Below, in pieces: positions 13,649-44,735 of a DNA stretch of 64,000 bases; position 1 is the stretch's first letter; each line of letters starts with the position of its first letter. The stretch lies in NCBI GenBank assembly GCA_002224055.1, contig AZLU01000148.1:1-64000 (forward strand). The letters are read 5' to 3'. The DNA is from Pezizomycotina sp. ARF18. Lineage: Eukaryota > Ascomycota. The translations under genes and the position numbers were made by a program. Below the pieces are notes generated by a model. That model worked only from the letters and a program-made list of their open reading frames with translations, was not told where the DNA came from and did not search any database.

Positions 13649-13983
13649 CTAAGCCCGAGCCCACCGATCCCCGCAACTCCTACACCCATCATCCCACGTC
13701 CACCTGGTGCCCTCTCAAACGGCGTAAGCTTAACGCACCACAAGCATATCATCTTCCCTCTGCTACGCGTCGGACATACCCCGGAACAACCTTAGGAGGA
13801 AGTAAATCTGCTGCCTCTCGTAATCCTTATGCCAATGCGACGGGTGCGTTTTTGAACGTGGGGGTTCAGGGAAGATGATGCGAAGAGGCGACATGTGAAG
13901 CGGAGGCACTGGCGGTCTACTTCGGTGGGGAGATCGCGGTGGATGTAGAGGAGGAGTTCGAGGGGGAGGGAGGGGAGCGACAT
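13649..13983 (-). CDS. F-box/CxxC family copy 1
   Basis: The start ATG at 13983 is abutted directly by an A15 tract (plus-strand T at 13984-13998). Box I is LPLELLLYIHRDLP and box II is EVDRQCLRFTCRLF. Box III (YFLLRLFRGMSDA), knuckle 1 (KMICLWCVKLT, near 13735-13760) and knuckle 2 (CRSCGD, near 13672) lie in the other two frames. All five family elements are present in order, with about three frame changes. The stop used here is the one just after knuckle 2. Confidence 0.65.
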
Positions 13984-14221
13984 TTTTTTTTTTTTTTTAT
14001 GTGGAGCGGTAGGGTTGATAAAATGTGGGAAGCTGTGGTTTTTGTCTTGATTTTTAGAAAGAAAAAAAAAAAAAAAGGCAATTTTGGCGGTTGATTCATA
14101 TGTCCAATGAAAAGCCTTAGGGCCTGTTGAAAGAATAACAGCCTCAGCTTGTCACCGCTGGCAGATGTACATGTACATAACAGCGAACCATCTAAACATT
14201 TATACAATATCCAAATCAGCA

Positions 14222-14254
14222 ACTTCCTCTTTCTCCCTCTCTCTCTCTCTCTCT
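14222..14254. repeat. CT microsatellite
   Basis: A run of CT dinucleotides sits between copy 1 and copy 2 of the F-box family. Confidence 0.7.
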
Positions 14255-14297
14255 GCCTATCTTCCAAATATCCTAATCTAAGAAACTCAAAAGAATA

Positions 14298-14691
14298 ATG
14301 TACAGCTTCCTCTCCTCCCTCGTCCTCCCTCAACCAAACCCTCCCGCGCGGAAACATCCGCCTCCCGCTCCTCCCCCCTCCACCTCATCCTCTTGAACTC
14401 TCATCGCCCGTCGACCGCGAGTGCCTCCGCGCCAGCTGCCGAAATCTCTACGGTATCAATCCCTCGACAAATCTTCCGGCGTCACAGAACTACCTTCCTC
14501 CGCCGCCTCCTTTCAGACTTACCGGAGGTTGATAAGAAAGGGAAAATAGTCTGCTGCTCTGCGTCAGCATAGTAGAATACAAACTCGTCCGGCGGGGGTT
14601 CGGCAGTACGGTTAAGCGCTGCGAGCGGTGCGGGACGGAGTATTTAAAGGATGGCGTTGATTTACGGAGGAAGATTGCGGTCGGGGTTTGA
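14298..14691 (+). CDS. F-box/CxxC family copy 2 (LHLIL subgroup)
   Basis: The ATG at 14298 precedes a Pro-rich lead, then LHLIL-LELSSPVDREC and LRASCRNLYG (boxes I-II). Box III is FLRRLLSDLPE. Knuckle 1 survives as KIVC with its second Cys out of frame. Knuckle 2 is KRCERCGTEYLK, with a stop at 14691. It is closest to copy 3 directly downstream in the same orientation, so this looks like a local tandem duplication. About three frame changes. Confidence 0.65.
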
Positions 14692-14762
14692 ATTATTGTC
14701 CACCCTTTTCTTTCTTTCTTTTTTCCTTTTGGTGTGGTTCGCGCTCTTTTCTATAGGCTGGT

Positions 14763-15206
14763 ATGCTCTACATTACATCAGCAAAGGGAGATGTACGCTC
14801 TCCTCTCCGGCTCCCTCTTTGCTCGTCGCCGCCCGTACAATCGGCACCCATCGCCCTGCTCCCTTACGACGTCCTCCACCTGATCCTCCTCGAACTCCGC
14901 TCCCCCGTCGACCGCGAGTGTCTCCGCGCCACCTGCCGTAATCTCCGCAACGCTCTGGCCCCGCATATTCCCCGCCTCCGTCAGCGCGACAGGACGGCAT
15001 TCCTCCGCCGTATCTTCTGGGACTACCCCGACCGCAAAAAACGCGGGAAGATAGTATGCTACCTCTGCGGCCGCATCGTACGTTACAAACTAGTGTGGAG
15101 GCAGTGGCAGTACATGAAGCGCTGCGAGGTTTGTAAAACGGAGTTTCCGAGGCGGGACGTAGATTTACCAGGCAAATACGCTGAAAAAAAAAATAAAATA
15201 AAATAA
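14763..15206 (+). CDS. F-box/CxxC family copy 3, intact
   Basis: One of the few uninterrupted members (147 codons, ATG at 14763). After a 35-residue lead come YDVLHLILLEL and VDRECLRATCRNL (boxes I-II, residues about 36-65), TAFLRRIFWDYPDRK (box III, about 78-92), KIVCYLCGRIVRYKLVW (knuckle 1, about 96-112) and KRCEVCKTEF (knuckle 2, about 119-128). Its last 42 nt overlap the convergent copy 4. The conserved cysteines are consistent with a four-Cys zinc site. Confidence 0.75.
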   Translation: MLYITSAKGDVRSPLRLPLCSSPPVQSAPIALLPYDVLHLILLELRSPVDRECLRATCRNLRNALAPHIPRLRQRDRTAFLRRIFWDYPDRKKRGKIVCYLCGRIVRYKLVWRQWQYMKRCEVCKTEFPRRDVDLPGKYAEKKNKIK

Positions 15207-15638
15207 AAAAGGCTTTTCTGGGGAAGGGTATTTAAAAGATAGAAGAGAAACACTACGCCACCTCGGATACGCACACCTCAAACACACCCTCCCCTTCGCC
15301 CAATTCCTCCCGTCGACGGCGTCGCTGTCGACGATCAACATGCACCTCCCGCACACCATCCTCCGACGCTTTCTCGCTTTACTTAGGTCGGAAAGGTATC
15401 GCTCGAGGAAGGATACGCGCTCGGGGTCGCGCGGCTCAACGGTGGCGGCGGAACTGTAGCGGATGCGGGTGTAGAAGATGTGACGCCCCACGGGTTTCGG
15501 ATCGGATGAGAGGCGGGGGGTGTAGTCTGGGAGGAGGGTGTAGGTGGGGGGCACGTGTGGCGGAGGGATTGGCGGTCGGAGCGCGGGAGTGGTCGAGGAT
15601 GCAGAGGAGGATGTCGAGGGGAGGGTCGTCAGTGGCAT
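15165..15638 (-). CDS. F-box/CxxC family copy 4, long linker
   Basis: The ATG at 15638 starts MPLTTLPS. Box I (LDILLCILDH) and the box II remnant (SDRQSLRHTC) are in neighbouring frames. From there an open frame carries a longer linker than usual, then VSFLERYLSDLSKAR (box III), RRMVCGRCMLIVDSD (knuckle 1) and VCLRCAYPRW (knuckle 2). The frame runs on into the 3' end of convergent copy 3, giving a low-complexity aromatic tail; the true stop may lie earlier. Confidence 0.65.
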   Translation of the reverse strand: MPLTTLPSTSSSASSTTPALRPPIPPPHVPPTYTLLPDYTPRLSSDPKPVGRHIFYTRIRYSSAATVEPRDPERVSFLERYLSDLSKARKRRRMVCGRCMLIVDSDAVDGRNWAKGRVCLRCAYPRWRSVSLLSFKYPSPEKPFLFYFIFFFSVFAW

Positions 15639-16065
15639 CTTAATTTTGCGCAAGTAGACGGAAAGAATTAGGTTCGATGAATGCTGGGCTGGAAAGGTGG
15701 TAGAAAATAGTAGCAAAAACTGGCTCAAGAAATATTTTTTTTTACACCAAGCTGAAGTGGAGTCTCCGCGGTGGGGGCCTCCTCCGTTACTTAACTGCCG
15801 CGTTGCTCAAATTTTTTTTCTTTTTTTTTTTTCCGTGACGACTTTTAAAATAATAATAATAATACCCCCTTCTCATCGGAAAAATCCAATTCTGAGGTTC
15901 TCACCGTTCTCCCCTCCATTCCTTCGCGGATATAAATGCTTAATAATTTCCTCTTTCCTGTTAAATCTCCGGCCCGGCCCGCGAGCGACCAAAATACTCT
16001 GAAGGCCTTATAAAAACTCCAGAAAAATTCCCCGGATTCCACATCGTCAACGAGGCGAAACCATC

Positions 16066-16432
16066 ATGATGCGTAAAAGTTTCCGAGTTCTTCTTTGGCT
16101 TAGCTTCACCTACAATAAGAAACAAAAAAAAATATTTCATGCGTCTAAACTCCCTTCCGCCAAAGTCCTCCTCTGTATCAACGACCAGATTCCCTCAGCT
16201 TGCGACCGCGAGTGCTTACGGAACACCTGCCGCCAACTCCGCCGCGTCCTACCTCCTCGGATTTCCGGGAGGACACGAACGAGCGGTTCTTATTTCTGGG
16301 CGGATATGCAGGGATTTACCAATGGGCGTACGCCGCCCGTAGCGCGTGAAGTTCTATGGGGGTGACTATTCTGGTGACTATTCTGGTGACTATTCTGGTG
16401 ACTATTCTGGTGACTATTCTGGTGGCTACTGG
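16066..16432 (+). CDS. F-box family copy 5 with GDYS repeat in place of knuckles
   Basis: The ATG at 16066 leads into VLLCINDQIPS and CDRECLRNTCRQLRRVLP (boxes I-II). Box III appears one frame over as GRICRDLPMG. Where the zinc knuckles should be, a 12-bp minisatellite encodes GDYS five times, then GGYW and a Lys run. No CxxC is present. Either the C-terminus was replaced by the repeat or the knuckles were lost. Confidence 0.55.
16361..16420 (+). repeat. 12-bp minisatellite, five exact units
   Basis: Five perfect head-to-tail copies of GGTGACTATTCT plus a degenerate sixth (GGTGGCTACTGG). In the frame that fits best it reads Gly-Asp-Tyr-Ser repeated. Confidence 0.95.
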
Positions 16433-16599
16433 AGGAAGAAGAAGAAGAAGAGCTTGAAGATGCTTTGAGAAGAAGACTTATTGGGCGGTCTTGAGGACGA
16501 CATCATTCTCGATGGTTCCTCCATTAAATCCAACAACAACCAAAAAAAAAAAAAAAAAAAGCGACTAAATACCAACACCGTCGAAAAAAGTACTGCTGA

Positions 16600-16975
16600 A
16601 TATCTCCTCGCGGAGTAACACGACCTCGCCCCCTCGCGGCCGAATAACCTCTCCAACCCCCTACGGTAAACTTCACGCCGCACTTCCCGCACCGCTTCCG
16701 CCGCGTCGTCTAAGATGATTTCGCAGCTGACCGCCCGGACGCAGAACGGGCACACCATCTTCCCGCTGGTTTTGGTTGGTGGCAGGTCCCGGAACAGGCG
16801 ACACAGGAACTTTACCTGCTCCCATTTCGATTCCAGCGTCTTGAGCGTTGAGCGGGGAGGGTACTCGGTAGAAATGGTTTGCAGCACGAAGGCATTCCCG
16901 ATCGCAGGCGGAGTGGACGTGCGCGTATACATAGAGAAGTAACTCGGGGGGAAGTGATGTAAACGCTGGCGGCAT
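16600..16975 (-). CDS. F-box/CxxC family copy 6
   Basis: The ATG at 16975 starts MPPAFTSLPPELLLYVYAHV (box I) with ACDRECLRAANHFYR (box II). The next frame gives QVKFLCRLFRDLPPTK (box III) and KMVCPFCVRAVSCEI (knuckle 1). A third frame gives KRCGKCGVKFTVGG (knuckle 2). The order is complete, with two frame changes. It faces copy 5 tail to tail. The 3' end is uncertain because the last frame runs on toward 16524. Confidence 0.65.
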
Positions 16976-17026
16976 AGCGAGGCTTGGACTTTTCTATACG
17001 TTGGGGGGTTTCCTGGCTATTCGACG

Positions 17027-17029
<3 letters not shown>

Positions 17030-17063
<34 letters not shown>
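17030..17063. repeat. T34 homopolymer
   Basis: The longest uninterrupted homopolymer in the window; it lies just upstream of copy 6. Confidence 0.9.
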
Positions 17064-17571
17064 CTAAGAAAATTTTTCATTGCCAGCGGTTTATGACGTT
17101 TTGGCCGTTGGGGACGAGGCTGCTTTCTTTATATCTTTTTCTTTTCTCTTTTTTTTTCCCCTTTGGTCGGTGGAGATACGGTACGGGAGAAGGCTTCGGT
17201 CCTATATCATAGCCTTCAATGATGAACAGAGATTGATAATGAAGGAAAAATAGGATCGAACAAAAAAAAAAAAACGAAAAAAAAAAAAAAACTATTACTT
17301 CCATAACGGCCGAATCGTCCTTTCTCAAGGGAGGAGAATTTGTAAATGGGTCGCGGTATCGATATTACCGAACCAGCTTTCCCTTCCAATTTTCCTTCTA
17401 ATCAATCTTTTGCTGTGAACCGGAGCTCCTAAATACCGGAACTTGTGCGACGAGCGCTAGCCGCTGTACAACCACCGTCTCCACGTCAAGCTCGTGCGAT
17501 AGGAGGTTACTAGTGATTACACTGTTGGTAGGGCCAAGGGCATCTCGTTAAAACTCGTCCGGCTGGGCTTA

Positions 17572-17866
17572 CTAACCCTCGACGTAACTCGTCCCGCACT
17601 TCATGCAGGATTTACCGCGGTAGGGGTGGCCGAGGTATTTATAGCGGACGATGAGCCTGCATTTCTTGCACGCCATCTTCAGTTTTCGTTCGTGGAGTTG
17701 TCGTCGCGTAGGAGCCGGTTGAGGAAGTCTACTGCGGTGGAAGGGTGGTGTTGGGAATGAGGATGTAGAAGCGCCGGCTGGTTAGCGGAGGCACTGCTGG
17801 TCTGTTGTCGAAATGGAGGAAATGATGGGAGGAGGAGTTCGGGGGAAGGAGGTCGAGGGCGGACAT
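17572..17866 (-). CDS. F-box/CxxC family copy 7, degenerate front
   Basis: The ATG at 17866 starts MSALDLLPP. Box I survives as PELLLPSF and box II as TDQQCLR in different frames. Box III is DFLNRLLRDD. The C-terminal part is clean: KMACKKCRLIVRYKY (knuckle 1) and SCMKCGTSYVEG (knuckle 2), with a stop at 17572. At least four frame changes make this one of the more damaged copies, yet the zinc part is well preserved. Confidence 0.6.
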
Positions 17867-18191: not shown

Positions 18192-18527
18192 ATGCGTAAA
18201 TACCTAGCATCCATCTTCCCCCTCTCCTTCTTCGCCAAACCATCGCCCCTCCTACTACTCCCACAGAACTACTCCTCCTCATAACCTCCCGCCTCCGCCT
18301 CTCCGACGCGCTATCTCTACGTATAACTGCAGACGGTTCTACGGCCTTATATCACGTCCAGCGCAAGGTGGATATGACCGCATCGTGTTTTTACGTAGGG
18401 TGTATTGGGATTTATCCCGAAAACACGGGAAGGCAAGACGGTATGCTGGGAGTGCGCGATGATAACGAGGAAAGGGGAGGCGGAGAGCGAGTGGTATATT
18501 TTGGGAAGAATAGGTGGGGAGGCGTGA
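18192..18527 (+). CDS. F-box/CxxC family copy 8, single knuckle
   Basis: The ATG at 18192 starts MRKYLASIFPLSFF, with TELLLLITSRLRLSDALSLR as box I and part of box II. The next frame gives NCRRFYGLISRP (end of box II) and VFLRRVYWDLSRKH (box III). The third gives VCWECAMITRKGEAE (knuckle 1), with a stop at 18527. No second knuckle is visible. Confidence 0.55.
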
Positions 18528-18925: not shown

Positions 18926-19274
18926 ATGTCCCTTCCCACAATCCCCACGACATCCTCCTCTGCATCCTCGACTACCTCCTCCGTATCCGACCGCCAATGC
19001 CTCCGCATGACGTGCTCCCGCCTCCGTCACCTCATACCGCCGCCGCCACCTAACCCCATACCAGCGTGGGCTAAACACTGGCCCGACTGGACCCAGCAGG
19101 TAAACTTCGCGGAAAGGTTGTTAAGGATAAACCGGAGGAGGAAAGGAGGACAGGATGGTCTGCGAGCAGTGCGTTAGGATGGTGAAGTATGAGGTTGTTG
19201 ACGATTGGAGGTACCCGGAGTTTGGGAGTAGGGAGTGTAAGGGATGCGGGGTGTTGGCTGGGGGCCTTTGGTAG
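18926..19274 (+). CDS. F-box/CxxC family copy 9
   Basis: The ATG at 18926 starts MSLPTIP. Box I (HDILLCILDYLL) is one frame over. Box II (SDRQCLRMTCSRLRHLIP) and VNFAERLLR (box III) are in the ATG frame. The zinc part is open and clean: MVCEQCVRMVKYEVVDDW and RECKGCGVLAGGLW, with a stop at 19274. Two or three frame changes. Confidence 0.65.
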
Positions 19275-19428: not shown

Positions 19429-19819
19429 TTATCCGTGTAGCTTCCGTCGGTTTATGTAAATAGCTATAAAACGTGTATTCCTGAGGGGGGGAAGAGTAGA
19501 CAAATCGCTTCCGCACATCTCGCAGCGCTTCACAAAAGTACTAAAACTGTCCCTGGAAAGGCTATATATAATGCACGATGCGAACGCACAGAAGGCATAC
19601 CATCTTATGCTTTTTGCTGCGCAGCTTTCGGGGAACTCCAAATGCAGGCGGCGGAGGAACGCGATCCTGTCGCGCGGGACGATCTGCGGGGGAGAATATC
19701 GTAAAGGGTACGGCAGGTGACGCGGAAGCACTCGCGGTCTGTGGGCCACTCGAGCGCGGAGGGGATGAGGTGGAGGACGTCGTAGGGAGGAGGGTGATTG
19801 GCGCGGGATCGGAGTTCAT
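19429..19819 (-). CDS. F-box/CxxC family copy 10 (YDVLHLI subgroup)
   Basis: The ATG at 19819 has an A10 tract two bases upstream. YDVLHLIPSALEWP and TDRECFRVTCRTLYDILP (boxes I-II) group it with copies 2 and 3. Box III is AFLRRLHLEFPES, knuckle 1 is KMVCLLCVRIVHYI and knuckle 2 is KRCEMCGSDLSTL. Three frames are needed, but all elements keep order and spacing. Confidence 0.65.
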
Positions 19820-20211: not shown

Positions 20212-20626
20212 TCAGAGCTCTTCGAACCGCCACATAAAAAACTCATCAGGATGGCCGTCGGGTACCTCCGACGTCCAGAGCAACCTCCACCTCGGACACT
20301 CGTACTTCGTCAGCGGCCACTGCTCGCCGTATCCCACGTGCACATCCGCATCGCCGCCCTGCTCGTAGCTATACCGGACGATCATCGTGCAGCTGGTGCA
20401 CGCTACGCTGCCTTTGAGGTTCCCGTCGCGCACGAGGTACTTTAAAAACCTGATATGCTCGTGGAAACTTCCCACAGCGACTCGTGGGTCGCAGAGCTTC
20501 ATGTGTGTTGTCGGCGGCGGGATGAGGGGGTACAGACGCTTGCAGGTCACGCGAGGCATTGCCGGTCGAAATCTGACGGGAGGAGGGATATTATGTGGAG
20601 GAGGAGTTCGGTGGGGAGGATAGCAT
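20212..20626 (-). CDS. F-box/CxxC family copy 11, long C-terminus
   Basis: The ATG at 20626 sits two bases from an A12 tract. Box I is LPTELLLHIISLLPS and box II is DFDRQCLA then VTCKRLYPLIP, across one frame change. The rest is one open frame to 20212: IRFLKYLVRDGNLKG (box III), VACTSCTMIVRYSYEQGG (knuckle 1) and a KYECPRWRLLW segment that keeps only one Cys of knuckle 2. Confidence 0.6.
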
Positions 20627-21490
20627 AGTTTTTTTTTTTTGAAGCTTCCAGGGTTTTGGAACTTAAGGGGCTGGCGTTTTTTTGTTTAAAAGTTTCGATT
20701 CGTTTTGGAGCGTGACGTGATGGAAGGAGGTGAAATTTAACGGAGGAAGTTTCCTTCCTTTGCTCTTAGTCAACCTTTTCAGAAGAGTCCGCGAACGCAC
20801 GTTATACGTGCCCTTTTTTTTTTTTTTTTTTTTTTTTCTCTTCATATTTTTCCCTCCTCGTCTCATCGGAAGCTCGATTCAAGCGGTTTGAACAAAAAGG
20901 ATTGTATGTTATATCCCAAAAGCTCCCCGCCGCATCGAGCACCTTATACCTTGCTACAGGCCACGGACCCGTATCCTACTGGGGTACGCGACTGCAAAAG
21001 ACTCCTCGGTTCCTTGTCCTGCTGCTTTCGCCGCGAAAAATTAATAAAACAACCTTCATCTGTGACCTCAAACTTAACAATTTCGAGGCGTTCAGGCCAT
21101 ACTGCGTTATCCTTTGTGTGTATTTTGGGTGGTCTGTGTATCGCGTATGGGAATTAGATACAGGAGGGGGAAGAAGAAGCTACGCGGAGGGAGGCATTGC
21201 CGCTCGCTGTAAGAGAGGAGGTAGTCCAAGATATAGAGCTGGATTTCGGTTGAAGGGATGATAGCAGAGACATTGTTTCGATATATTATTGCTTCTTTCT
21301 TTGGCTCCGAGACTGAGACTTAGAGATGAATTCTGGCCAGAGGTGAATATAAGGCTGAATATTGATGCTTGCGGAAGCGGGGGTGAACGATATTTCAAAT
21401 GACCGGCTTCAGAAGGTAGAATAAATCTTGCATCTCAGCCTTGCAGCGAAGTAAATACAGCCAACCGATTCCTCTAATTCCTTCTCCTCC

Positions 21491-21871
21491 TCAAACGTCG
21501 CCCTGGTCAACCATAATGTATGTACTATAGCACGCAGGACAGACAGGATTCCAGGTGGACTTCTTCGTCACGACGACGTCAAACTTTACGAGCTTTAAAC
21601 AGCGCCGCGCACACCCTCTTCTCTTTCCTCGTTGGATCGGAATCGCGAAGGAGACGGTCGAGGAAGTTGATTGCACGTATTCGTCGCTATTTTCACATTC
21701 TCCAAACATGTTCATCGAAGCGAGAGGTATGAGGCGGTAAAAGAAGGTACAGGTCATACGAAGACATTGCTTGTCTGCTTTGTAGAGGTATGGGAGATAC
21801 GCAGGTGTATCTCGGTGGGTAAGGAAGATAGAGGCATCGATGCTGGGGAAATCTGGCTTTCTTATGAGCAT
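21491..21871 (-). CDS. F-box/CxxC family copy 12
   Basis: An ATG at 21871 gives 126 open codons. Box II is KADKQCLRMTCTFFYRLIP. Box III (INFLDRLLRDSDPTRK) is one frame away. GCARRCLKLVKFDVV (knuckle 1) and NPVCPACYSTYIM (knuckle 2) follow. Box I is weak (DTPAYLPYLY). It starts at the base where the next copy's open frame ends, same strand. Confidence 0.55.
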   Translation of the reverse strand: MLIRKPDFPSIDASIFLTHRDTPAYLPYLYKADKQCLRMTCTFFYRLIPLASMNMFGECENSDEYVQSTSSTVSFAIPIQRGKRRGCARRCLKLVKFDVVVTKKSTWNPVCPACYSTYIMVDQGDV

Positions 21872-22364
21872 TATAAGCCGGGAGTCGGGTAGGAGTAAAT
21901 GGTTTCTGAAAATTCGTTTGATTTTACAAAATACCTGGCCATGTTATGATCTAGAACCGTAAGAAATCCATCCCGCTTCTCAGCCGAAATACTTGGCCGT
22001 GCTATCATCATTTCCCCCAACTCCAGGCCCCTGCACCGCTTCCCAACCGCCCGAAAACTCCCGTCGTATTCCACTATCTCGTACTTCACCACGAGCGCAC
22101 AAGGCCAGCATAGCATCCTCTCGTTTTTCCTTTCTGGGGTAGATCGCGGAAATAGCGCTCTGGGAAGACTTGGTAGCCGCAGTGCTGGAGGCTGTTGAAA
22201 TCGCGGGTGTGAACGGTGCGGTTGTCGATGTGGTGGCATGAGGGGAGACAGGGGAGTCGAGGGTGCGTATAGCTGGCGGCTAGCGTGCCGGACGGATTGG
22301 GGTCGAGCGGGGAGGTAGTCGAAGATGTAGAGGAGGACGTCGGCGGGGAGGCTGCTAGTGGCAT
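21871..22364 (-). CDS. F-box/CxxC family copy 13, knuckle 2 incomplete
   Basis: The ATG at 22364 is followed, one frame over, by SLPADVLLYIFDYLPARPQS and RQLYA (boxes I-II). An open frame continues to LCWPCALVVKYEIVEYDGSF (knuckle 1) and KRCRGLELGEMM, in which the second CxxC has lost one Cys. Box III shows as YFRDLPQKGK in the ATG frame. Last copy of the left block. Confidence 0.6.
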
Positions 22365-22856: not shown

Positions 22857-23307
22857 TCATTCTGACTCACTAACGCTAGATTTATGAGCCGGTAATCTTT
22901 CGAAAACGACCCAGTAAGTAACACCACGTTCATCGCGTTTCTTGGGCTCCCTCAGCAACGGGCAACTATATCTATTCTGCGCCCAGTTGAACCTTAGAGC
23001 ATTTCGCGCGTAGTTAAATAATCTCTGGTCCTTTGCCTCGTCGTCAATGTGCCACCGGTTAAGGTAGTCTTCGGCCAATTCCTCAAGGACGGAGCAATCG
23101 CTACAGTCGCAGGACCGTGAAGAAACCAATCCTTGCTGTCTTCTCCCGGAGCAGTTCTGTGGTACAGCCTATATGCTCGCAGCGTATGGTGGTTTCTTGT
23201 GTAGAATTGAACAGAACACAGAATGCGCTTGTTCGTAAAACGAATGACGTTCCCTCATTTATTTCGCCATTGTGGCAGGCAAGATAAAACACTATAGCGG
23301 AACACAT
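22857..23307 (-). CDS. small Cys protein with C-terminal YWVV motif, copy A
   Basis: The ATG at 23307 starts MCSAIVFYLACHNGEI. After TTIRCEHIGCTTELL one frame change leads to CDCSDCSVLEELAEDYLNRW, a basic stretch (LREPKKRDERG) and VTYWVVFERL near the end. About 150 residues. It aligns along its length with 31237-31681: MC start, YLxC, GE, CDCSxC, LA, ERGVxYWVV. The paired Cys suggest metal binding or disulfides. No family name is known to me. Confidence 0.55.
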
Positions 23308-31236: not shown

Positions 31237-31681
31237 TTAGGAATTTCTAGTAAAGTCTTGACTAACCCCAACTACCCAATAGGCAACCCCTCGCTCATTA
31301 CGCCTCTTATCGGGCTCTTCTTCAAACCACCGAAAGCTTCTAATGCTTCTCACGCTTTCGAGCATTAGTACATTGTTCGCGTATGCAAGTAACTGGCGGT
31401 ACTTCTGGCTTAGTGTTGCAACGTTGTTGTTCATGATCCGAGCTAGTGTTTTCAGGTCATAGCATCTGCTGCAGTCGCAGTACTCGTAGTAGAACTTGTT
31501 TTTCGTTCTCGTCCTCCATCTCTTCCTCGACGTCGTTGAAGCGGCCTATGTGTCGAGTAACTCTAAGTACCTTCTTCTTGCATCTACAAACACCCTCGTA
31601 TTTGGAATACAAGCGGATGACGTTCCAGTTGTCTGTCTCTCCTCGAGGGCATGATAGGTAGATGAAGATGTGGTGGCACAT
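31237..31681 (-). CDS. small Cys protein with C-terminal YWVV motif, copy B
   Basis: The ATG at 31681 starts MCHHIFIYLSCPRGET. Next come EGVCRCKKKVLRVTRHIG and an acidic helix (DVEEEMEDENE). After one frame change in an A-run come FYYEYCDCSRCYDLKTLARI, LESVRSIRSF and KRRNERGVAYWVVGVSQDF. Paralogue of 22857-23307, same strand, about 8.4 kb apart. Both flank the STAND gene and the repeat-tailed protein. Confidence 0.55.
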
Positions 31682-32373: not shown

Positions 32374-32775
32374 CTAGCCGTAATAATAGCCCAAATTTGG
32401 CCGAGTAGGCAGTAACCGATTACCGCAACAACTGTACCACTTCACGTCCTCCCTCCTATCCTGCGACCTCCACCATTCGTAGTCCACCTCGCATGTAGTG
32501 ACCTTCATGCAGTGCCGACATACACCTTTGCGTTCTTTCAACTGCTTCGGTAAATCGCCAAAGTAACGCACTAGAAATTCCAACTGTTCTTTGGAACTCT
32601 TCCACTCGAGAATCGGTTCGGGCTTCGTTCTGCGCCGAACTTTATACACCGTGGGACGTGGTATTATGATGTAGAGGTTCCGGCAGGCAAGACTGAGGCA
32701 TTGCTTGTCTACTTCTGAAGGGAGATAGTCGAGGATACAGAGGACGAGATCGGTGTGGAGCGTTGATAGCGACAT
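32374..32775 (-). CDS. F-box/CxxC family copy 14, intact reference member
   Basis: 133 codons from the ATG at 32775 without interruption. LHTDLVLCILDYLPSEVDKQ and CLSLACRNLYIIIP (residues about 6-40) fit the F-box pattern of a Leu-rich helix, Pro, then an acidic/Cys helix. QLEFLVRYFGDLPKQ (about 64-78) is box III. GVCRHCMKVTTCEVDYEWW (about 83-101) is knuckle 1. KWYSCCGNRLLP is knuckle 2, with Tyr where most copies have the first Cys. F-box proteins bind Skp1 in SCF ubiquitin ligases. The short length and zinc-knuckle end, in place of LRR or WD repeats, are unusual for described substrate adaptors. Skp1 binding is not provable here. Confidence 0.75.
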   Translation of the reverse strand: MSLSTLHTDLVLCILDYLPSEVDKQCLSLACRNLYIIIPRPTVYKVRRRTKPEPILEWKSSKEQLEFLVRYFGDLPKQLKERKGVCRHCMKVTTCEVDYEWWRSQDRREDVKWYSCCGNRLLPTRPNLGYYYG

Positions 32776-33086: not shown

Positions 33087-33468
33087 ATGGCTCTCACGAA
33101 TCTCCCCGCTGAGCTTCTCTCCTGCATCGCAGATTACCTGTCTCCCGCGGATAAGCAGTGCCTGCGCCTAGCATCTCCGTGCTTTTCAATACACTTCCGG
33201 CTTCAAAGTGGACAGACTACGTAGTCCAGCAACTCGTATTCCTGGACGCAGTCTCGCAGATATTCCAGCCTCGGACAGAGAAATGAAGGCGGTTTGTAGC
33301 CGTTGCAGGAAGATAGTTCCCTACAGAATCCATAAGGTTACGCAGATTCTAGAAAGGGATACAGAAGTTCGCGTGGGCAAAATCAAAATATACGAGCGGT
33401 GCGGTGCGATGGTCAAGGAAGAGAGGACGAGGCCGAAACTACCTCCGAGTAGAACGTTTAGCAACTAA
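33087..33468 (+). CDS. F-box/CxxC family copy 15 (MALTNLP subgroup)
   Basis: The ATG at 33087 starts MALTNLPAELLSCIADYLSP, then ADKQCLRLA (boxes I-II). The next frame has KWTDYVVQQLVFLDAVSQIF (box III). The third has KAVCSRCRKIVPYRIHK (knuckle 1) and IYERCGAMVKEE (knuckle 2, one Cys kept), with a stop at 33468. Two frame changes. It shares its first seven residues with copy 16 downstream, so the pair looks like a tandem duplication. Confidence 0.65.
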
Positions 33469-33826: not shown

Positions 33827-34328
33827 ATGGCTCTCACAAACCTTCCCCTTGACATCCTCTCCATCACGGACTTCATCACGCCGGTGGATCGGCGATGTTT
33901 CCGCCTGCCCCTCTCGTGAGTTTTTAAATAGCCTCGCGGCTCCAGATTGGACAAAAGACCTACACCTGGACCAGCTCAAATTCCTACAATGAATCCTGAG
34001 GGACTTTCCCGCCCGAGAACGGAAAGCGAGAACGGTTTGTAATAAATGCGGCAAGGTTGTTCCCTATAAAGTCCACCTTGTTACGAGGGCCCCGAGGGTT
34101 GGAATCCAGGTGCGTCCGGGAAAGGATGTTCACATGGACACTGGAAAGCAGTGTGTTCAGTGCGGCGAGGTGTGTAACGGTGAATGGCTGAGGCTGAGGA
34201 GGCGAGCGATGGCTCGAGGGTTATCCAGCGGCTCTGTTTCTGAGAACTTCAGTTTGACAAAGAGAGGCTGTGTAGGACGGTATGGAAAAGAAACGGCCAG
34301 TGCAGGCTTTAGATTGTTCTGCGATTAG
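33827..34328 (+). CDS. F-box/CxxC family copy 16 (MALTNLP subgroup), long tail
   Basis: The ATG at 33827 starts MALTNLPLDILSITDFITPV, then DRRCFRL. One frame change follows, then LDQLKFLQ, an in-frame TGA, and ILRDFPARERK (box III). By family alignment the TGA stands where Arg is expected. TVCNKCGKVVPYKVH (knuckle 1) and KQCVQCGEVCNGEW (knuckle 2) are perfect, followed by a basic 50-residue extension to 34328. The extension is not shared with other copies. Confidence 0.65.
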
Positions 34329-34472: not shown

Positions 34473-34503
<31 letters not shown>

Positions 34504-34508
34504 TTAAA
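34471..34508. repeat. TTA trinucleotide microsatellite
   Basis: About ten ATT/TTA units in an intergenic A/T-rich patch. Confidence 0.85.
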
Positions 34509-34804: not shown

Positions 34805-35237
34805 ATGTCATTTACAAACTTACCCATGACATCGTCCTTTGTATCGTGGATCTCCTCTCTTCCGAATCGGACCGTCAATCTCTTCGCTCAACCTGTCGCG
34901 CTTTTCGTGCACTTCTCCCATCCCCCATTCTAGCGCCTTATCCTAAACCTCCTGTTCTCTTTCGTCCTTTCGGCCGCGGTATGCCGCGTACGCTGATACC
35001 ACAAGAATCGGATCCACAAGCGTGGCTCGACGACAGAGAACAAGTAGAATTTCTCCGGCGATTACTTAAGGATACGACCCTAGCGGATCCCAAATTGAAA
35101 CGAAGGATGAAGTGTTGGAGTGGGATGTTTGTGAAGCGTGCAGGAGGATAACACTGCAGAGAATGGAGGGGACAAGGAAGAAGGGACAGACGTGGATTAG
35201 GTGTAAGGGTTGTAGGGCGAGGCTTCTGAACGAATGA
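34805..35237 (+). CDS. F-box/CxxC family copy 17
   Basis: The ATG at 34805 lies 23 nt after an A22 tract. MSFTNLP is followed one frame over by HDIVLCIVDLLSSESDRQ and SLRSTCRAFRALLPSP (boxes I-II). A longer, Pro-rich linker leads to QVEFLRRLLKDTTLADPK (box III). A last frame change gives DVCEACRRITLQRME (knuckle 1) and IRCKGCRARLLNE (knuckle 2), with a stop at 35237. Confidence 0.65.
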
Positions 35238-35676: not shown

Positions 35677-35975
35677 TCATAAACGCTGCCGCCAGTGTCC
35701 GCACCTGCTGCACTTCCTGTAATTTCCCTTGTACTTATCTGCGCGGGTGATGCGTACGCAGCCCGAGCAGACCATGCTTAATTTCTGTTCTAGAGGAGAT
35801 AGGTCCTTTATGTGCCGGTTGAGGAAATCCAGCAACTGCGGCCGGTGAGATAGTACGGCTCTATGATGTTGTATAATCGGCGACAGGTTAGGCGGAGGCA
35901 TTGCCGGTCGACTTCGGATGAGATATTGTCGAGAACGCAGAGGAGAATCTCGTAGGGTATCTTTGCGAGGGACAT
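35677..35975 (-). CDS. F-box/CxxC family copy 18, one frame change
   Basis: The ATG at 35975 starts MSLAKIPYEILLCVLDNISS, then EVDRQCLRLTCRRLYNII (boxes I-II, textbook match). A single frame change in the linker leads to QLLDFLNRHIKDLSPLEQ (box III), LSMVCSGCVRITRADKY (knuckle 1) and RKCSRCGHWRQRL (knuckle 2), with a stop at 35677. Among the best preserved copies, about 100 residues, and close to the minimum size of the family. Confidence 0.7.
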
Positions 35976-36356: not shown

Positions 36357-36671
36357 CTAGTCTCTATATCCAGGACCTCGCTTCAGTCTTTCGCCTCTGC
36401 AATGATGCATGGCGCCCACGGTGCTCACGCACCACGGACAGATGTATTGATTCGTGACCGCGCGGTCGGAAAACAGCCTCTGAAGGAAAATCTTTTGCGC
36501 GGAGCTGCCCGCTCGCCACCGCCTGTACGGAAGCACCCTAACAATCGGTGCCGCCGGTAGGACCAGGTACAGTTTCCGGCAGGTGCAGCGCAAACACTGC
36601 CTATCGATTTCGGAGCTTAGGTCGTCAAGAATACAGTAAAGAATCTCGACCGGGAGAGATTGGAGGGACAT
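36357..36671 (-). CDS. F-box family copy 19, open frame, one knuckle
   Basis: From the ATG at 36671: MSLQSLPVEILYCILDDLSS, then EIDRQCLRCTCRKLYLVLP (boxes I-II), KIFLQRLFSDRAVTNQ (box III) and YICPWCVSTVGAMHHC (knuckle 1). The frame then ends GPGYRD at 36357 with no second CxxC. The open frame extends 65 codons upstream to 36866, but the MSLQSLP start matches the family and is preferred. Divergent from its neighbours; otherwise intact at 104 residues. Confidence 0.7.
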   Translation of the reverse strand: MSLQSLPVEILYCILDDLSSEIDRQCLRCTCRKLYLVLPAAPIVRVLPYRRWRAGSSAQKIFLQRLFSDRAVTNQYICPWCVSTVGAMHHCRGERLKRGPGYRD

Positions 36672-37587
36672 TGCGGGAGAAAGAAGAATAGCGGGAGATA
36701 AAACTTTACGGAAGACGAAGGGATGCAAACAAAGGAGCCGAAGACAAATCCAGGTTTTGCGCGAGGCTCTGCATCCACAAAGCCCCGCTTCTAGTATTAG
36801 GCCAAGCCCATTCGCCATCCAGAGTGATTTACAGCTGGCACAATGGTGACAATCCTGACGCACCACGTTTCACTTCTAATATCTTCAGGGTGAGTGAGTC
36901 AAAGAGTAACCTGTACTGAAATATGGTCTGCTCCCGAAAACCTGCCTCCTAGCGTACCCACAGCCGTTTTCTATCGCGACCAGATCTAACCAATCGCGGC
37001 GGAGGGCAGAATTCGTTAAACCGGCGGCAAGTATATTATAACGTAAAAACTGCTAAGCCTTGGACATTTTAGAAAATCAGGGATGTGATCTCGAGCGGGA
37101 ACGAGCCCGAGGCGGGGGAAATTTGGCACAATGATTGCAATCCACCAGTTGAAGCGACTTGAGTTCGTCGGGAGCGAATACCGCTGGCGTCCTGAATGCT
37201 GTAGGAACTATTGGATTTGTAGTTGGAGAATGTTCTGGAAGGCTTGCTAGCTGTTTCTCTATTACGTTATAGCTCATGTATAGAAGAAACATATCATGCC
37301 TGTACTAACACGCTTGGTCACTTCCTCGTTGCGGGACCAAGAAAATATGAGAGGAGAAATGGACAAGTATAACTCAAGAAACTTTAAAATATACTGCTCT
37401 GCCTTGTCCGTCATGACAGCTTGGAAAGCCTCGTTTAAAAGCAAGCCCCAAGCAAACTTTTTCCTTTTACATATATCAATCTTTCTAGCTATTTGGCACT
37501 ATTCTCACCACTTCGTCCGTATAACTAACTCCATAAAAGCTCCAGCCTCGGAAGCAGTCATTAAAAGCAATCTTCTTAAACCAACCA
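36672..37587. other. spacer between copies 19 and 20
   Basis: No supported gene. The two flanking copies diverge from this gap, so it should hold both promoters. A plus ORF at 37296-37634 overlaps the start of copy 20 in another frame. Confidence 0.4.
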
Positions 37588-37966
37588 ATGGGGCTTCAAT
37601 CCATGCCTGTCGAAATTCTCCTCTGCATCCTTGACTATCTTCCTTCCGCCTGCGACCGTGAGTGCCTCCGAAACACCTGCCGGCGGTTTAAGCGCACACT
37701 TCCGACTCCGCGACGTTTATCTCCCCCATTTAACCATCACTGGGATTCGACATCCTTCGAGCAGCTCAAATATTTGGACCGGCTGCTCGCTGACATGCCC
37801 AACGCTCAAAGACGGGGCCACATCGTGTGTAGAAGCTGCGTCGGCATCGTACAGTACAAGCCTATAAAGCATTAGAGGCAGGATGTGTAAACGGTGTTGC
37901 CACACATATGGTAATATCAACACAAGCGGGGGTTTCACCAGAGCTCCTCAAAGCTCCTCAGGTTAG
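37588..37966 (+). CDS. F-box/CxxC family copy 20, nearly intact
   Basis: The ATG at 37588 starts MGLQSMPVEILLCILDYLPS, then ACDRECLRNTCRRFKRTLP, EQLKYLDRLLADMPNAQRRG (box III) and HIVCRSCVGIVQYKPIKH (knuckle 1), in one frame to a stop at 37875. One frame change beyond it lies MCKRCCHTYGNINT (knuckle 2), with a stop at 37966. This is either a 95-residue protein with one knuckle or a longer one with two. Confidence 0.7.
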
Positions 37967-38148: not shown

Positions 38149-38698
38149 ATGAAAATGGATCCTGCCTTCCAGTCCATAGCGACGGAAATCCTCCTCTAAT
38201 CATTCAAAACATAACCTCCGAGCCCGACAGACAATTCTTAAAGCAAAATGTCATCTCTTATATAGCCTTGTTACGCCCTCGCATCTAAAGTCTTGGGATA
38301 AGCACTCAGAGCAGGTTGATTTCTTGCAAAGGATCTATAGGGATTTACCGGAGGAACAGAAAAACAAAATGATGATATGCTTCTCTTGCTGTTGCATTAT
38401 GCGCTTTCGGGTTCCGATAGTCTATAAAATGCCGGTAATGGAAAGGGAGGAACTTAGAGACTGCGTAGGCTGCGGGATATCGGAGGTTTTATTGGAAAGG
38501 GAGTCAGTGGTGGTAGGCTTGCAGCTTCGGCGGCATACTGCGGCTCTGGCAGAATCTCGCGTATATAAATGGAAGCTGAGCGGGCCATATGTTTTTAATC
38601 AGCTTGCAAACAAAACCTCACGAAAAAGGCACAATATCACTGCAATCACTCCAGACAAAACTCGTCTACGCCATCCTCCACGAACTTCGCGTCTCTGA
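38149..38698 (+). CDS. F-box/CxxC family copy 21
   Basis: The ATG at 38149 starts MKMDPAFQSIATEILL. The next frame holds LLIIQNITSEPDRQFLKQ (end of box I and box II). The open frame 38324-38698 holds VDFLQRIYRDLPEEQ (box III), MMICFSCCCIMRFRV (knuckle 1) and LRDCVGCGISEVLLERE (knuckle 2). The frame then runs on into the front of copy 22, so its last 50 residues are probably not native. Confidence 0.6.
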
Positions 38699-38935
38699 AG
38701 CAGCCAGGAATCTCTAAGGGCCACATGCCGCCATCTGTACAATACCATCCCTCGAGCCCCTTGTAGGAAGAAGAAATCCTCCTTTGCCGACTCGAGAGGG
38801 TGGTTTGACGACTAGAAGCAGCTCGACTTCCTCGTTCAGAGATTTACCTCAGGAACAGCAAAAAGAGCACATGCGTGCAGTTATTGCTGCGGTATTATAT
38901 TTTATAGGCTGCCAGAGCCGGTTCGAAAACCCTGA
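38640..38935 (+). CDS. F-box/CxxC family copy 22, damaged
   Basis: TKLVYAILHELRVSE (box I), then one frame over ESLRATCRHLYNTIPRAP (box II). An in-frame TAG follows, then KQLDFLVQRFTSGTAKRA (box III) and HACSYCCGIIFYRL (knuckle 1), with a stop at 38935. No ATG is visible and knuckle 2 is missing. It overlaps the run-on end of copy 21. This is the best candidate for a true pseudogene in the family. Confidence 0.5.
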
Positions 38936-39589: not shown

Positions 39590-39926
39590 ATGTCCTTTCA
39601 ATACTTCCCCCAGAGCTACTCGACATCATCCTCACCGACGTAACAGATATACTAGACGTCCTATGTCTTCGTAATACCTGCCGACGGTTTCGCAATTTCA
39701 TACCGGCACCGGTTTGTTTTCGAAGGTACGGATGTGTGGCAGGATATAAAGCTGAAATGGGCCTTCCTCACCAGACTGTTTCCTCGCTCAGCCACCCGAG
39801 AAGCAGGACACAACGATGGTTTGTCATCCGTGCATGAGGATCGTACCGTGTACGCGGGGCAAATTCAACGCGAAGAGCTGCTTAATCTGCCAGCTCGCGC
39901 TGAAGGACGCGTCTAAGAGAATTTGA
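39590..39926 (+). CDS. F-box/CxxC family copy 23
   Basis: The ATG at 39590; one frame over, LSILPPELLDIILTDVTD, then VLCLRNTCRRFRNFIPAP (boxes I-II). WAFLTRLFPRSATRE (box III) and then TTMVCHPCMRIVPCTRGK (knuckle 1) and KSCLICQLALKDASKRI (knuckle 2) use other frames, with a stop at 39926. The Asp/Arg pair at the start of box II is replaced by Asp-Val. Confidence 0.6.
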
Positions 39927-40523: not shown

Positions 40524-40875
40524 ATGTGGAAAAACATCTTCGGCGTCAACCCAAAGTCGAAACCCTCACCCTTACCAACCTCCCTTCAGATGTTACTCCT
40601 CTGCATTATCGATGAAATATCTTCAGAAATAGATAAACAGTGCTTGAAGTTGACATGCCGTGGCCTGTACAACTTCGTCCCGATATAGGATACCCTAACG
40701 ACAAACATCTCGGCTTTCTTTACAGACTACATAGAGATATCAGTAAACGATCGAAAGGTCTTATGGTTTGTGGATGGTGTCTGAAGATCACGGTTGCCGG
40801 CGAGACTGAGTCGGTAGGCAGCACAGGTGCGCGAAGTGCGGAGAATGGTGGTTCGATCTGGGATTCTATGGTTAA
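40524..40875 (+). CDS. F-box/CxxC family copy 24
   Basis: The ATG at 40524 opens MWKNIFGVNPKSKPS, then QMLLLCIIDEISSEIDKQ and CLKLTCRGLYNFVPI (boxes I-II), ending at a TAG. The next frame gives HLGFLYRLHRDISKRS (box III) and MVCGWCLKITVAGE (knuckle 1). One further change gives RCAKCGEWWFDLG (knuckle 2), with a stop at 40875. Its N-terminal extension is distinctive. Confidence 0.65.
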
Positions 40876-41312: not shown

Positions 41313-41639
41313 ATGAGCGATACAGTAAAGCGCAGCCCACAAGATTTGGCAGTACTTCCCTTGAAATCCTGCACGTCATTGACGCCTTCATCAGCGAAGC
41401 CGACAATCACACTCTTCGCGCGACCTGCAAGGATTTCACAGATTCCTCGCGAGAATACAAATTGCAGCTGCCCTGACGCGGCCGTCGTTTTATCGAGAGA
41501 CAGAACCGACGGCTTCGCCAAGAGGTAGCCTTCTATGGAATGCAAACGTCAGCGAGAAGACTTCATCGAGCGACTCTTCCGGGATTCAAAGAACCACTTC
41601 AGGATAAGCCAGTGTCATTATGGGGCTCGGCCAGGTTGA
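41313..41639 (+). CDS. F-box family copy 25, no zinc part
   Basis: The ATG at 41313 (MSDTVKRSPQDLAVLP). One frame over, SLEILHVIDAFISEAD, then NHTLRATCKDFTDSS (boxes I-II). Further on, EDFIERLFRDSKNHF (box III) leads only to SQCHYGARPG, with a stop at 41639; no CxxC remains. Spacing suggests the normal gene length but decayed knuckles. Possibly a pseudogene. Confidence 0.5.
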
Positions 41640-42489
41640 ACTATACGTTATTGGTAAAGCGCCCTCTTGTTTCAAATGTAGATGGTTGCTGAGAAAATGG
41701 TTGCCCTTGTGACGAGCGCTTCGACGGAGAGATGCTGAGGACGAGCTCAAGGAGCTGTGGCAACTACGAAGGAGTTGTCGGTTTGACTGGCCCGAACGGA
41801 ACTCTGAGGGGTAATGATGGATATTGAAGGCTTTACTGCGCGTCGTCTGCACCTGAGGATACTATGCACGATTATGTAGGGTTCCTGGCTTGAGGGTTTG
41901 TACGAGAACATTCTCTTGTATATGAATTCGATATATCGGAGGTAAAGAGCATCGCTAAGACGATTACTTGGAGGGTCATAACAACACATGGTTCGAACCG
42001 AATAATTTTATCTGCCTTGGACAGCACCGGTATAAGGAAACATGATATGGAACATCTTTGTGCCCTTGCAGAATTGCCGCGTGAATTTCGAGAAGCAAAG
42101 AAGGTCGCGATTTCATTGTATGGATACGTTCAAATTTCAAATTTCCAAAAGGATTGCGCGTATCACGGTTCTCAGTTTCTAGATACGGTGGAGTTTCGTT
42201 GCCATTGAAGAATCTTTGGTCTCATTTCAACTCTGAACAGCTTTGAGAGATTTCAGTTAATCGCGCGCCTCGCAAATAATTACGCAACATAACTACTTTT
42301 ACTTGTTTCCCTCGTGTTTCCCAAGTTCGTTTCGCAATGCGATCTGCCTTGACCTTTACTAGCTGGATGATCGTATTATTATTTGATTTGGAGGATCGCG
42401 TTCTAGAATCTCACAACGATGTTTCGGAAAATATAAGAATGCTTTGTTTCTCGTAACTAGTATAGTCCCCTTGTTACGAAGTTGCTAGA

Positions 42490-42866
42490 AATGTGTAAAA
42501 GATTCCATGACATGGTTACGATATCACGAAAGGTCCTGATTATCTCGCCAATTTGAATATCTCTCAAACTGACGAATGATTTCCCCGGCTACGGCGCAAA
42601 CGTGGATATTAGAATCGCAGTCGTTCCTATGACCTCCCAACGCCGTTTTCGTTGTTGAACAGCCTTCCTATACGAAGAACATCTATCGAAGAGGTGCCAT
42701 TAATCTTCCTCCCGGAGAATCGTATCTTCCTTATCAACCCCTACCTTTCCGAACCGGATCACTATTCCTTGCAATGCAGCTGCAGGGTATTGCACTCTTG
42801 CTTGATATACTTGATTCAGAGACGGCTCTAGAGAATGCGCTGGCGCGATATCCGTGCACCGAGTGA
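42490..42866 (+). CDS. unrecognised coding segment spread over three frames
   Basis: Consecutive protein-like blocks: HGYDITKGPDYLANLNIS, then FPGYGANVDIRIAVVPMT, then a 77-codon open run 42633-42866 with no ATG at its front. That run reads AVFVVEQPSYTKNIYRRG, INLPPGESYLPYQPLPFRTG and LDILDSETALENALARYP, then a stop. Composition is balanced and complex, unlike chance frames. It may be the 3' part of a larger gene. No family recognised. Confidence 0.4.
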
Positions 42867-43581
42867 GTTAAAGAAGGCACGAAGGCGAAAAAAAATTGGT
42901 GTCTAGGTAGATTCTCCACTACCCAACAACCATGGCAGGAACGATTCGATGAATGGCTGTGGCGATAGTTAATGCTAAGCGCCGTTCGCAAGTCAATGAT
43001 TCATTGGTCTGATGGATATTATTCCGTTCTCCAGCCAAACCACACAGTTCTATCACTAACCAGAAGCCGGAAATCTTATGTATCAGCAGAGAAAACGAAA
43101 TATTTATTATCTTTGTTATAATAAACTATAGTTTATACAAGAATAGAAGGAATAACATGATCTTATTTCAATCTGATGGTCTTAGAAACCCTCATAGATA
43201 GATACAAGAATCAGCGAACCCGTCCCTTCGGAGGCGCGACCGGCGGCTCCTTTTGGCGGAGGGGCTTGTTTTTGGTTTCCTTAGGAGCATCCTCGAAAGG
43301 TAAAGGAGGACTCGGCCTCCGGATTCTAAGCTGACAACAAACCGTATTCCTTCGCAAGCACCTCCGGGTAGTTCCACAATGCCATGATGGATTTCGATGC
43401 GCGATGATTCGATTCCGGAGCTCGTAGTCTTTTTGCGTTTAAGAATATAACTGAAAAAAAAAAGTATTAGTGATTATTGCCCTATTAAATGGTTGGAATT
43501 GAGGAAGTAAAGATGTATGGAGCAATACTCACTCATAGTGCATACGATACATGTCGGGTCTCTGGGTTGGATAGATCGTCG

Positions 43582-43868
43582 CTACTTTCGGAAACGTGAT
43601 CCTGGGGCAATCGAGCAAACTGTTTTACCCTGGCGGAGGTCTCCCGGCGAACAGATACCGCGATATATCTGTTCGATGAAGTCCAGCTGTGCTTCCCAAT
43701 CTGCCCATTTCCTAACTGTGCGCTTCAGGTTCAAACAGTTGTAGCTAGGATTCGGAAAAACACATCGCAAAAGAAAACAGGCAGATGCGAGCGATACTTA
43801 TCCGCTTCTTTCGGGAGCTCGCTGCTGATTTGTTGGAGTATCTCTCCCGGTAAGGACATAAGCGACAT
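43582..43868 (-). CDS. F-box family copy 26 with probable intron
   Basis: The ATG at 43868 (MSLMSLPGEILQQISSELPK, then EADK) gives box I. A 53-nt GT..AG segment follows, after which YNCLNLKRTVRKWADWEAQ, LDFIEQIYRGICSPGD (box III) and a remnant KTVCSIAPGSRFRK end at 43582. If the intron is real, this is the only member with one visible; a frame change is the alternative. No intact CxxC pair remains. Confidence 0.55.
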
Positions 43869-44291
43869 CGTGTAGATGGTTCAAGTGGATGTGGAGACAT
43901 TTCTGAACTTCGTGACACTGGAACTTTGCATATGCGACGTCAAGTCGAAAGTGGAAATCAGCCTATAAGTAATTGACGAGGCGACCTTCTGAATGGAGAA
44001 AAATTCCTCTTGAGAATCGCAGGATCTTGGTCTATTGGTGCGACGAGAATGGTTGCAAACTGGGATGGCCAGTTGGCCGTACCCACGGGTATCCAACGCC
44101 TCTCGGTTATTGGGCGGAAGTCATCCAATGATCCCCGCGATATCGAATGGAAATGCCCTGCCCTGAAAATCTCGTTCTAGATCGTGAAATATTGCCGTAC
44201 AATCGCTATAATAGTCGTGGTTTAAATCAATTCCGATCCATTATTCGCCGTCCTCATTATTCATCTTAGTAGGTATGCCGGCGCCGAAGAC

Positions 44292-44735
44292 TTATTTCCG
44301 CGTAAAGACTTTCCACGATTCCTCTTCCCCAGTAAACTTCTTCCAATACTCATTCAATTCTTCGGCACACCAAACACACATCCGATCGCCTTTGATAGTC
44401 TGTCGCCTTGTCCTAAAGAAAGGATTTTCTTCCGGATCGACTCTCCTGAGGCGTAATACCAACGGTCGTTTTTCGGAACCTCTGTGCACCAGGAACAATG
44501 AGAGCAGACCAACAGACTCTCGTCTTTGAGCGCCGGTATCATATACATATCCCTCATGAGGCGTGTTAGGAATTCCCGGATTTCGCCATCGTAGGCTTCG
44601 AGGGAAACCCTACGAGGTGCCGGTGGGAGGATGAATCGAAGGTAAGAGTTGGCTTGACGGAGGGATTGTCGGTCGACTTCGGATGATATATTCGAGTGGA
44701 TGCGGATGAGAACCTCGGCCGGAGTGACGATAAAG
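44292..44735 (-). CDS. F-box/CxxC family copy 27
   Basis: An open frame: VTPAEVLIRIHSNISSEVDR, then QSLRQANSYLRFILPPAP (boxes I-II), IREFLTRLMRDMYMIPALK (box III), LLVCSHCSWCTEVPKNDR (knuckle 1). Knuckle 2 (DRMCVWCAEELNEYWKK) is one frame over, with a stop at 44292. The front lacks an ATG in frame. A short exon from an upstream ATG (near 44806), joined over a 31-nt GT..AG gap, would supply one. Last copy of the right block. Confidence 0.6.

What the first reader, a model, noticed from the sequence alone, without database searches (positions are those of the whole stretch)
13649..44735. A 27-copy clustered family joining an F-box-like domain to a paired CxxC module
I count 13 copies at 13.6-22.4 kb and 14 at 32.4-44.7 kb, on both strands. 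Each has the same five elements in the same order: box I, box II, box III FLxRLxRDLP, knuckle 1 MVCxxCxRIVxY and knuckle 2 CxxCGxEL. F-box proteins normally carry large substrate domains; here the whole adaptor is about 105-150 residues with a zinc-knuckle end. Seen directly: motifs and order. Known: F-boxes bind Skp1. Inferred: a local, fast-diverging set of SCF adaptors, comparable in logic to other expanded recognition families.
Basis: partly seen in the sequence, partly recalled or inferred. Interest (0 to 1): 0.8.

Follow-up and report, generated by a model that had tools for sequence, protein, structure and literature searches.

The report
Clustered short F-box proteins, zinc-ribbon tails
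In a fungal genome, two dense clusters hold about thirty copies of a very small protein gene that joins a protein-destruction adaptor domain (F-box) to a small, probably zinc-binding tail; it is a real, locally expanded family, and its many broken-looking copies can be explained by errors in the genome assembly.

Summary
Family profiles find 30 loci in two clusters (14 at 13.7-22.4 kb, 16 at 32.5-44.7 kb); 26 of 30 show both an F-box half and a CxxC half. Ten shuffled windows gave 3 F-box-half and 0 CxxC-half hits in all, against 31 and 26. The N-terminus is F-box-like. The paired CxxC is real: a second CxxC follows in 59 of 76 copies, against 10.7 by chance. A deep-alignment AlphaFold2 model suggests a four-Cys zinc ribbon rather than zinc knuckles; a BED-finger-like first half is the alternative. 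This need not be decay: four HSP70 genes of the same assembly are broken at a similar rate (4.3-11.6 shifts/kb against 4.7), so the assembly carries pervasive indels; in-frame stops are few. The family was also read on nine other contigs, groups by contig on a tree, and SKP1 and cullins are present. Best reading: a lineage-expanded set of minimal SCF substrate receptors. Skp1 binding, zinc and expression are untested. New variant of a known kind.

The parts
13708..13983 (-). copy 1, both halves, 2 frame changes
14395..14595 (+). copy 2, both halves, box I not recovered, 2 frame changes
14763..15206 (+). copy 3, open frame through F-box, box III, CxxC 1 and CxxC 2; the copy modelled by AlphaFold2 (14844-15203)
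15312..15638 (-). copy 4, both halves, 3 frame changes
16139..16321 (+). copy 5, F-box half plus a box-III-like RICRDLP; followed by a 12-bp tandem repeat
16714..16963 (-). copy 6, both halves, 1 frame change
17638..17834 (-). copy 7, both halves (F-box half weak, E about 0.25)
18254..18488 (+). copy 8, both halves, 2 frame changes
18926..19202 (+). copy 9, both halves, 3 frame changes
19568..19787 (-). copy 10, both halves in different frames
20368..20618 (-). copy 11, both halves, 1 frame change in box II
20991..21273 (-). copy 12, F-box half only by profile, weak
21572..21837 (-). copy 13, both halves, 3 frame changes
22066..22356 (-). copy 14, F-box and CxxC in one open frame, box III in another frame
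32374..32775 (-). copy 15, open frame F-box to CxxC 1; second element reads CCG
33087..33336 (+). copy 16, both halves, 2 frame changes
33827..34076 (+). copy 17, both halves, 1 frame change, 1 stop
34805..35145 (+). copy 18, both halves in one open frame, start in another; second Cys of CxxC 1 absent in frame
35728..35975 (-). copy 19, both halves, 1 frame change (reader called it intact)
36360..36671 (-). copy 20, both halves in one open frame
36839..37035 (-). copy 21, partial
37588..37872 (+). copy 22, open frame F-box to CxxC 1; the one copy seen over Pfam's F-box-like cut-off; CxxC 2 in another frame
38167..38413 (+). copy 23, both halves, 2 frame changes
38634..38896 (+). copy 24, both halves, 3 frame changes, 1 stop
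39595..39854 (+). copy 25, both halves, 2 frame changes
40565..40792 (+). copy 26, both halves, 2 frame changes
41351..41603 (+). copy 27, both halves (C half weak), 2 frame changes
42700..42804 (+). copy 28, F-box half only
43595..43868 (-). copy 29, both halves, 2 frame changes
44450..44737 (-). copy 30, both halves in one open frame

Best explanation
A locally duplicated fungal family of very short F-box proteins (open copies of about 95-150 residues). The N-terminal F-box-like helices dock on the genome's SKP1 and so on an SCF (Skp1-cullin-F-box) ubiquitin ligase; a hypervariable linker leads into a conserved helix (box III) and a Cys4 zinc ribbon, which are the only parts left to contact a substrate. 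Each copy would bring a different target to ubiquitination, and local duplication with divergence of linker and ribbon supplies new specificities. Shown here: the family, the order of its elements, the F-box-like profile match, the paired CxxC, a ribbon-like predicted fold, grouping by contig on a tree, SKP1 and cullin genes. Inferred: Skp1 binding, zinc binding, substrate recognition, expression. Most broken frames are taken to be indel errors of the assembly, not pseudogenes.
Confidence: 0.65

Rival explanations
1. The clusters are mostly a graveyard of pseudogenes of a once active F-box family, with a few live copies.
For: 20 of 26 two-half copies in the window have a frame change between or inside the halves; four loci show one half only; a tandem repeat follows copy 5. 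The piece-based control gives 1.8 frame changes per kb in HSP70 and CCT genes, below the 4.7/kb of the F-box copies by the aligner. PMC5041008 (passages seen) states that many C. elegans F-box genes are pseudogenes.
Against: HSP70 genes read by the same aligner carry 4.3-11.6 shifts per kb against 4.7 (window 5.4) in the F-box copies; in-frame stops are few; the cysteines of the first CxxC are kept in nearly all readable copies.
Confidence: 0.2
2. The tail is a DNA- or chromatin-binding finger (BED-like or ribbon) and the protein acts on nucleic-acid-bound partners, as an SCF receptor there or in a non-SCF role.
For: Two of 21 C halves pass the zf-BED cut-off (21.6 and 21.5 against 20.6, over profile positions 3-27 of 44), four of 21 match at E<=0.1; structural neighbours include polymerase and TFIIB-complex chains (low Z). 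PMC11750091 (listing only) reports an F-box protein acting as a transcriptional coactivator.
Confidence: 0.17
3. Not an F-box: an unrelated helical N-terminus that resembles one by chance.
For: One of 7 window ORFs scanned passes Pfam's cut-off; no F-box chain in the Foldseek rows shown; profiles A1 and A4 find none in the PDB.
Against: 37 of 40 N halves match F-box-like at E<=0.1; relatives of the same family on contig C83 exceed the cut-off (C83:22360, 24155, 49366, 52657); FBXO31 alignment.
Confidence: 0.07

Closest known systems
F-box proteins of SCF ubiquitin ligases (Pfam PF12937, PF00646; human FBXO31 aligned)
   Same: LPxELLxI ... D ... LRxxC pattern of the F-box; one SKP1 match and cullins present
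   Different: No WD40, LRR or other known substrate domain found; the rest is a linker, one helix and a Cys4 tail. Skp1 binding not tested.
Zinc ribbons (chain I of RNA polymerases II/III/V, RPB9/C11 by recall; TFIIB complex)
   Same: Two CxxC pairs with predicted strands around them
BED zinc finger (PF02892)
   Same: Aromatic/hydrophobic helix then CxxC: 2 of 21 C halves pass the cut-off over its first half
   Different: Second element is CxxC instead of H-x3-5-H/C (recalled pattern)
Clustered F-box expansions of Caenorhabditis (PMC5041008, passages; PMC8665587, listing) and plants (listings)
   Same: Species-specific dense clusters of F-box genes
   Different: Here a fungus and a CxxC-pair tail
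Aspergillus nidulans F-box set (74 proteins, PMC9744329, passages) and Macrophomina phaseolina (PMC7991009, passages)
   Same: Fungal F-box proteins
   Different: This genome has 121 listed stretches over the F-box-like cut-off (hand count; stretches, not genes; 150 of 285 candidates scored), many in clusters; for M. phaseolina the authors saw no F-box cluster

Membership tests
F-box protein | F-box domain by curated profile | tested here: met
   Copy 37588-37875: 27.9 bits against 24.3; the other 6 ORFs are below; 11 of 20 window N halves and 37 of 40 of a mixed set match PF12937 at E<=0.1
F-box protein | binds Skp1 | not testable with these tools
   No complex prediction or assay; SKP1 domain found once, on C306
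F-box protein | F-box fold | tested here: inconclusive
   Model has helices 8-17, 21-30, 32-37; fold searches hardly tested residues 1-61
SCF substrate receptor | C-terminal substrate-binding part | tested here: inconclusive
   C half has no substrate-domain match; only zf-BED passes a cut-off, in 2 of 21 C halves and over its first half; substrate unknown
Zinc ribbon | two CxxC pairs | tested here: met
   first pair Cys in 78 of 78 and 72 of 76 rows; second pair in 59 of 76
Zinc ribbon | beta-ribbon fold with both pairs at turns | tested here: inconclusive
Zinc ribbon | binds zinc | not testable with these tools
   needs metal analysis
CCHC zinc knuckle | CX2CX4HX4C in one short motif (recalled) | tested here: not met
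   the two elements are CxxC pairs mostly 45-90 nt apart; the open copies aligned show no such spacing by eye
zf-BED finger | profile cut-off 20.6 bits | tested here: inconclusive
   2 of 21 C halves pass (21.6, 21.5), over positions 3-27 of 44; the whole protein of the first scores 18.4
zf-BED finger | second half H-x3-5-H/C (recalled) | tested here: not met
   second element is CxxC in 59 of 76 copies

The most novel reading that the evidence does not exclude
A fungal repertoire of minimal ubiquitin-ligase receptors in which a single zinc ribbon with a hypervariable linker is the whole recognition unit, diversified in clusters on either side of an NB-ARC/TPR (NLR-like) gene, so that it could act as a self/non-self or anti-parasite recognition set.
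Probability: 0.12. Interest if true: 0.7.

Novelty: new variant of a known kind. Interest (0 to 1): 0.42.

Why it matters
If right, it shows how small an SCF substrate receptor can be and gives a natural library (dozens of copies in one genome) of CxxC-pair recognition modules on one F-box scaffold; a fungus would join nematodes and plants as host of clustered F-box expansions. It also gives a warning: in this assembly, frame breaks by themselves say nothing about gene decay.

Tried and rejected
Pseudogene reading: not taken as the main one because HSP70 controls are broken at a similar rate by the same aligner. By the piece-based count (32 tight frame changes in 17,583 nt of HSP70 and CCT, 1.8/kb; a few of the 32 are doubtful; typed from 37 of 38 rows and 30 of 33, dropping C10, two of C70 and one of C20) the controls look less broken. 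The aligner comparison rests on four HSP70 genes; C3, C208 and C70 have intron-like gaps that may inflate their counts; the one without, C49, gives 6 shifts in 1,385 nt (4.3/kb), a little under the window's 5.4. Real decay of some copies is not excluded. In one search C3 and C208 were read on the wrong strand (scores near 14); one search repeats them rightly.

Introns between the halves: the gap is not clearly longer in different-frame pairs (median 45 nt, n=58) than in same-frame ones (39 nt, n=23; Mann-Whitney p=0.61; some loci are counted twice through partial hits and overlapping stretches). Gaps of 100-183 nt, several on C146 and C161, may hold an intron.

Homopolymers at frame changes: runs of 4 or more within 8 nt at 16.2% of 105 sites against 14.4% expected, so the error type is not identified; the -1 class dominates (68 of 105 in F-box copies; 24 of 32).

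Relatives elsewhere: two protein-database searches gave none at E<=0.01 (614 and 71 candidates). The first query alignment held partial pieces and one out-of-frame start, and the search needs shared 5-residue words, so this is weak evidence; the same database does hold fungal proteins. From recall, short fungal F-box proteins with a box-III-like motif and CxxC are not rare in filamentous ascomycetes; no call shows this.

No F-box chain is in the rows shown of the PDB searches; the viral library gave no match at E<=0.001. PDB by sequence with the C-half profile: best E 0.14, a zinc finger.

Literature: eight searches (10-15 rows listed of up to 223 papers) showed no title on a fungal F-box family with a zinc tail; only open-licence papers are held. 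I saw listings for these, and passages of PMC9744329, PMC11412873, PMC3828140, PMC7991009 and PMC5041008.

Species: not identified. That it is a filamentous ascomycete is recalled knowledge applied to rDNA.
Full report
What was checked. The window is contig C148:1-64000 of a 46.36 Mb, 408-contig genome. Its rDNA, one SKP1 match, cullin genes and a potassium transporter piece whose four organism-named database hits are fungi (Leptodontidium, Penicillium, Paraphaeosphaeria, Leptodophora) mark it as a fungus. The species is unknown.

The family is real. Profiles of the F-box half and of the CxxC half find 30 loci, 14 in 13.7-22.4 kb and 16 in 32.5-44.7 kb, on both strands and nowhere else in the window at E<=0.3. 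26 of 30 have both halves. Dinucleotide shuffles gave 3 F-box-half hits and no CxxC-half hit at E<0.02 over ten trials, against 31 and 26 hits in the real window (profiles built partly from these copies).

Paired CxxC. In the frameshift-tolerant reading of 97 loci (30 window, 67 from 20 fetched stretches) the first Cys of the first pair is Cys in 78 of 78 readable rows and the second in 72 of 76 (partly by construction). The second CxxC was not in the profile and is therefore a fairer test: 59 of 76 have the pattern within 30-150 nt downstream in any frame, mostly at 45-90 nt, against 8 of 76 antisense and 10.7 of 76 at random places.

F-box. The best window copy passes Pfam's F-box-like cut-off; the other six ORFs of that scan do not. 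Of the 40 best of 81 N halves, 37 match PF12937 and 29 PF00646 at E<=0.1; of 20 window N halves (of 24 at E<1e-5), 11 and 9. A profile of the 40 aligns human FBXO31 at E 0.0046, next to a chance-looking SAVED-domain chain at 0.0028; profiles A1 and A4 found no F-box chain.

Broken frames look like an assembly matter. Six of 26 window copies keep F-box, box III and first CxxC in one open frame. But HSP70 genes of this genome are cut into abutting pieces in different frames with no room for introns, for example seven pieces over C49:53036-54818, and CCT genes show the same; one search counts 32 tight changes in 17,583 nt, 24 of the -1 class. With one aligner the F-box copies show 114 shifts in 24,434 nt (4.7/kb; window 40 in 7,392, 5.4/kb); HSP70 genes 6.3 (C70), 4.3 (C49), 7.5 or 11.6 (C3) and 4.7 or 6.5/kb (C208), the pairs being two query proteins; simulated undamaged copies gave 0.37/kb false calls. 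So no clear excess is seen in the F-box copies. Stops are 33 in 7,998 codons when they cost nothing (7 in 2,444 in the window), against 2.05% in arbitrary frames. The three closest pairs with usable dS have dN/dS 0.27, 0.28 and 0.33; others reach 0.70.

Extent and origin. F-box-like matches are spread over the genome: 151 matches, 121 listed rows over the cut-off by my hand count, 150 of 285 candidates scored; runs of them lie on C7, C78, C83, C146, C311 and others, not read here. Copies of this very family were read on C83, C136, C146, C161, C214, C28, C5, C128 and C150. On a FastTree tree of 75 readable copies (no support values used), contig labels change 19 times against 43.1 shuffled (minimum 36 of 300), so copies seem to arise mainly by local duplication; the 22 C83 copies fall together and carry PGN in box III with further CxxC pairs downstream in several. 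The two clusters of this window are mixed on the tree.

How it likely works. By analogy with F-box proteins the N half docks on Skp1; box III plus the Cys4 tail, joined by the hypervariable linker (0.76 bits a column against 2.09 for the F-box), would hold the substrate. The first step rests on profile similarity, the second on exclusion: little else is left in the protein. Neither is tested.

Verdict. Real and well conserved in plan; membership in F-box proteins likely; mechanism inferred; a new variant (very short, CxxC-pair tail, clustered in a fungus) of a known kind. Its absence from two database searches is weak evidence of rarity.

Noticed in passing
28430-30535 (+): An NLR-like gene between the two clusters: a P-loop piece (GMGGMCKSQ) with weak AAA_16/NB-ARC matches (E 0.016, 0.074) and a TPR_12 match (E 4.5e-6, below the cut-off), in four open pieces.
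   Followed up: partly
22860-23168 (-) and 31240-31545 (-): A second, two-copy paralogous pair (38% identity over 71 aa, E 3e-9 for the one comparison) just outside the inner ends of the two F-box clusters; no third copy at E<=0.1 in the genome search. Hints at a duplicated block.
   Followed up: partly
genome G000: HSP70 and CCT loci: Pervasive small indels in the assembly: the HSP70 and CCT genes counted show frame changes without room for introns in 12 of 13 loci (all but C44), so gene-decay claims from this assembly are unsafe.
   Followed up: yes
L009, about 750-1225: An insert of several hundred bases near the end of the small-subunit rRNA gene before ITS1, like a group I intron (recalled), in the rDNA; part of the LSU reads N.
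   Followed up: no
16361-16428: 12-bp tandem repeat (GGTGACTATTCT, 5.7 copies, 98% match) directly after copy 5.
   Followed up: no
61540-62038: Two near-identical direct repeats 293 and 297 bp apart (95% and 100%).
   Followed up: no
L014-L019 (contig C83): A variant branch with PGNxF in box III and, in several copies, further CxxC pairs downstream.
   Followed up: partly
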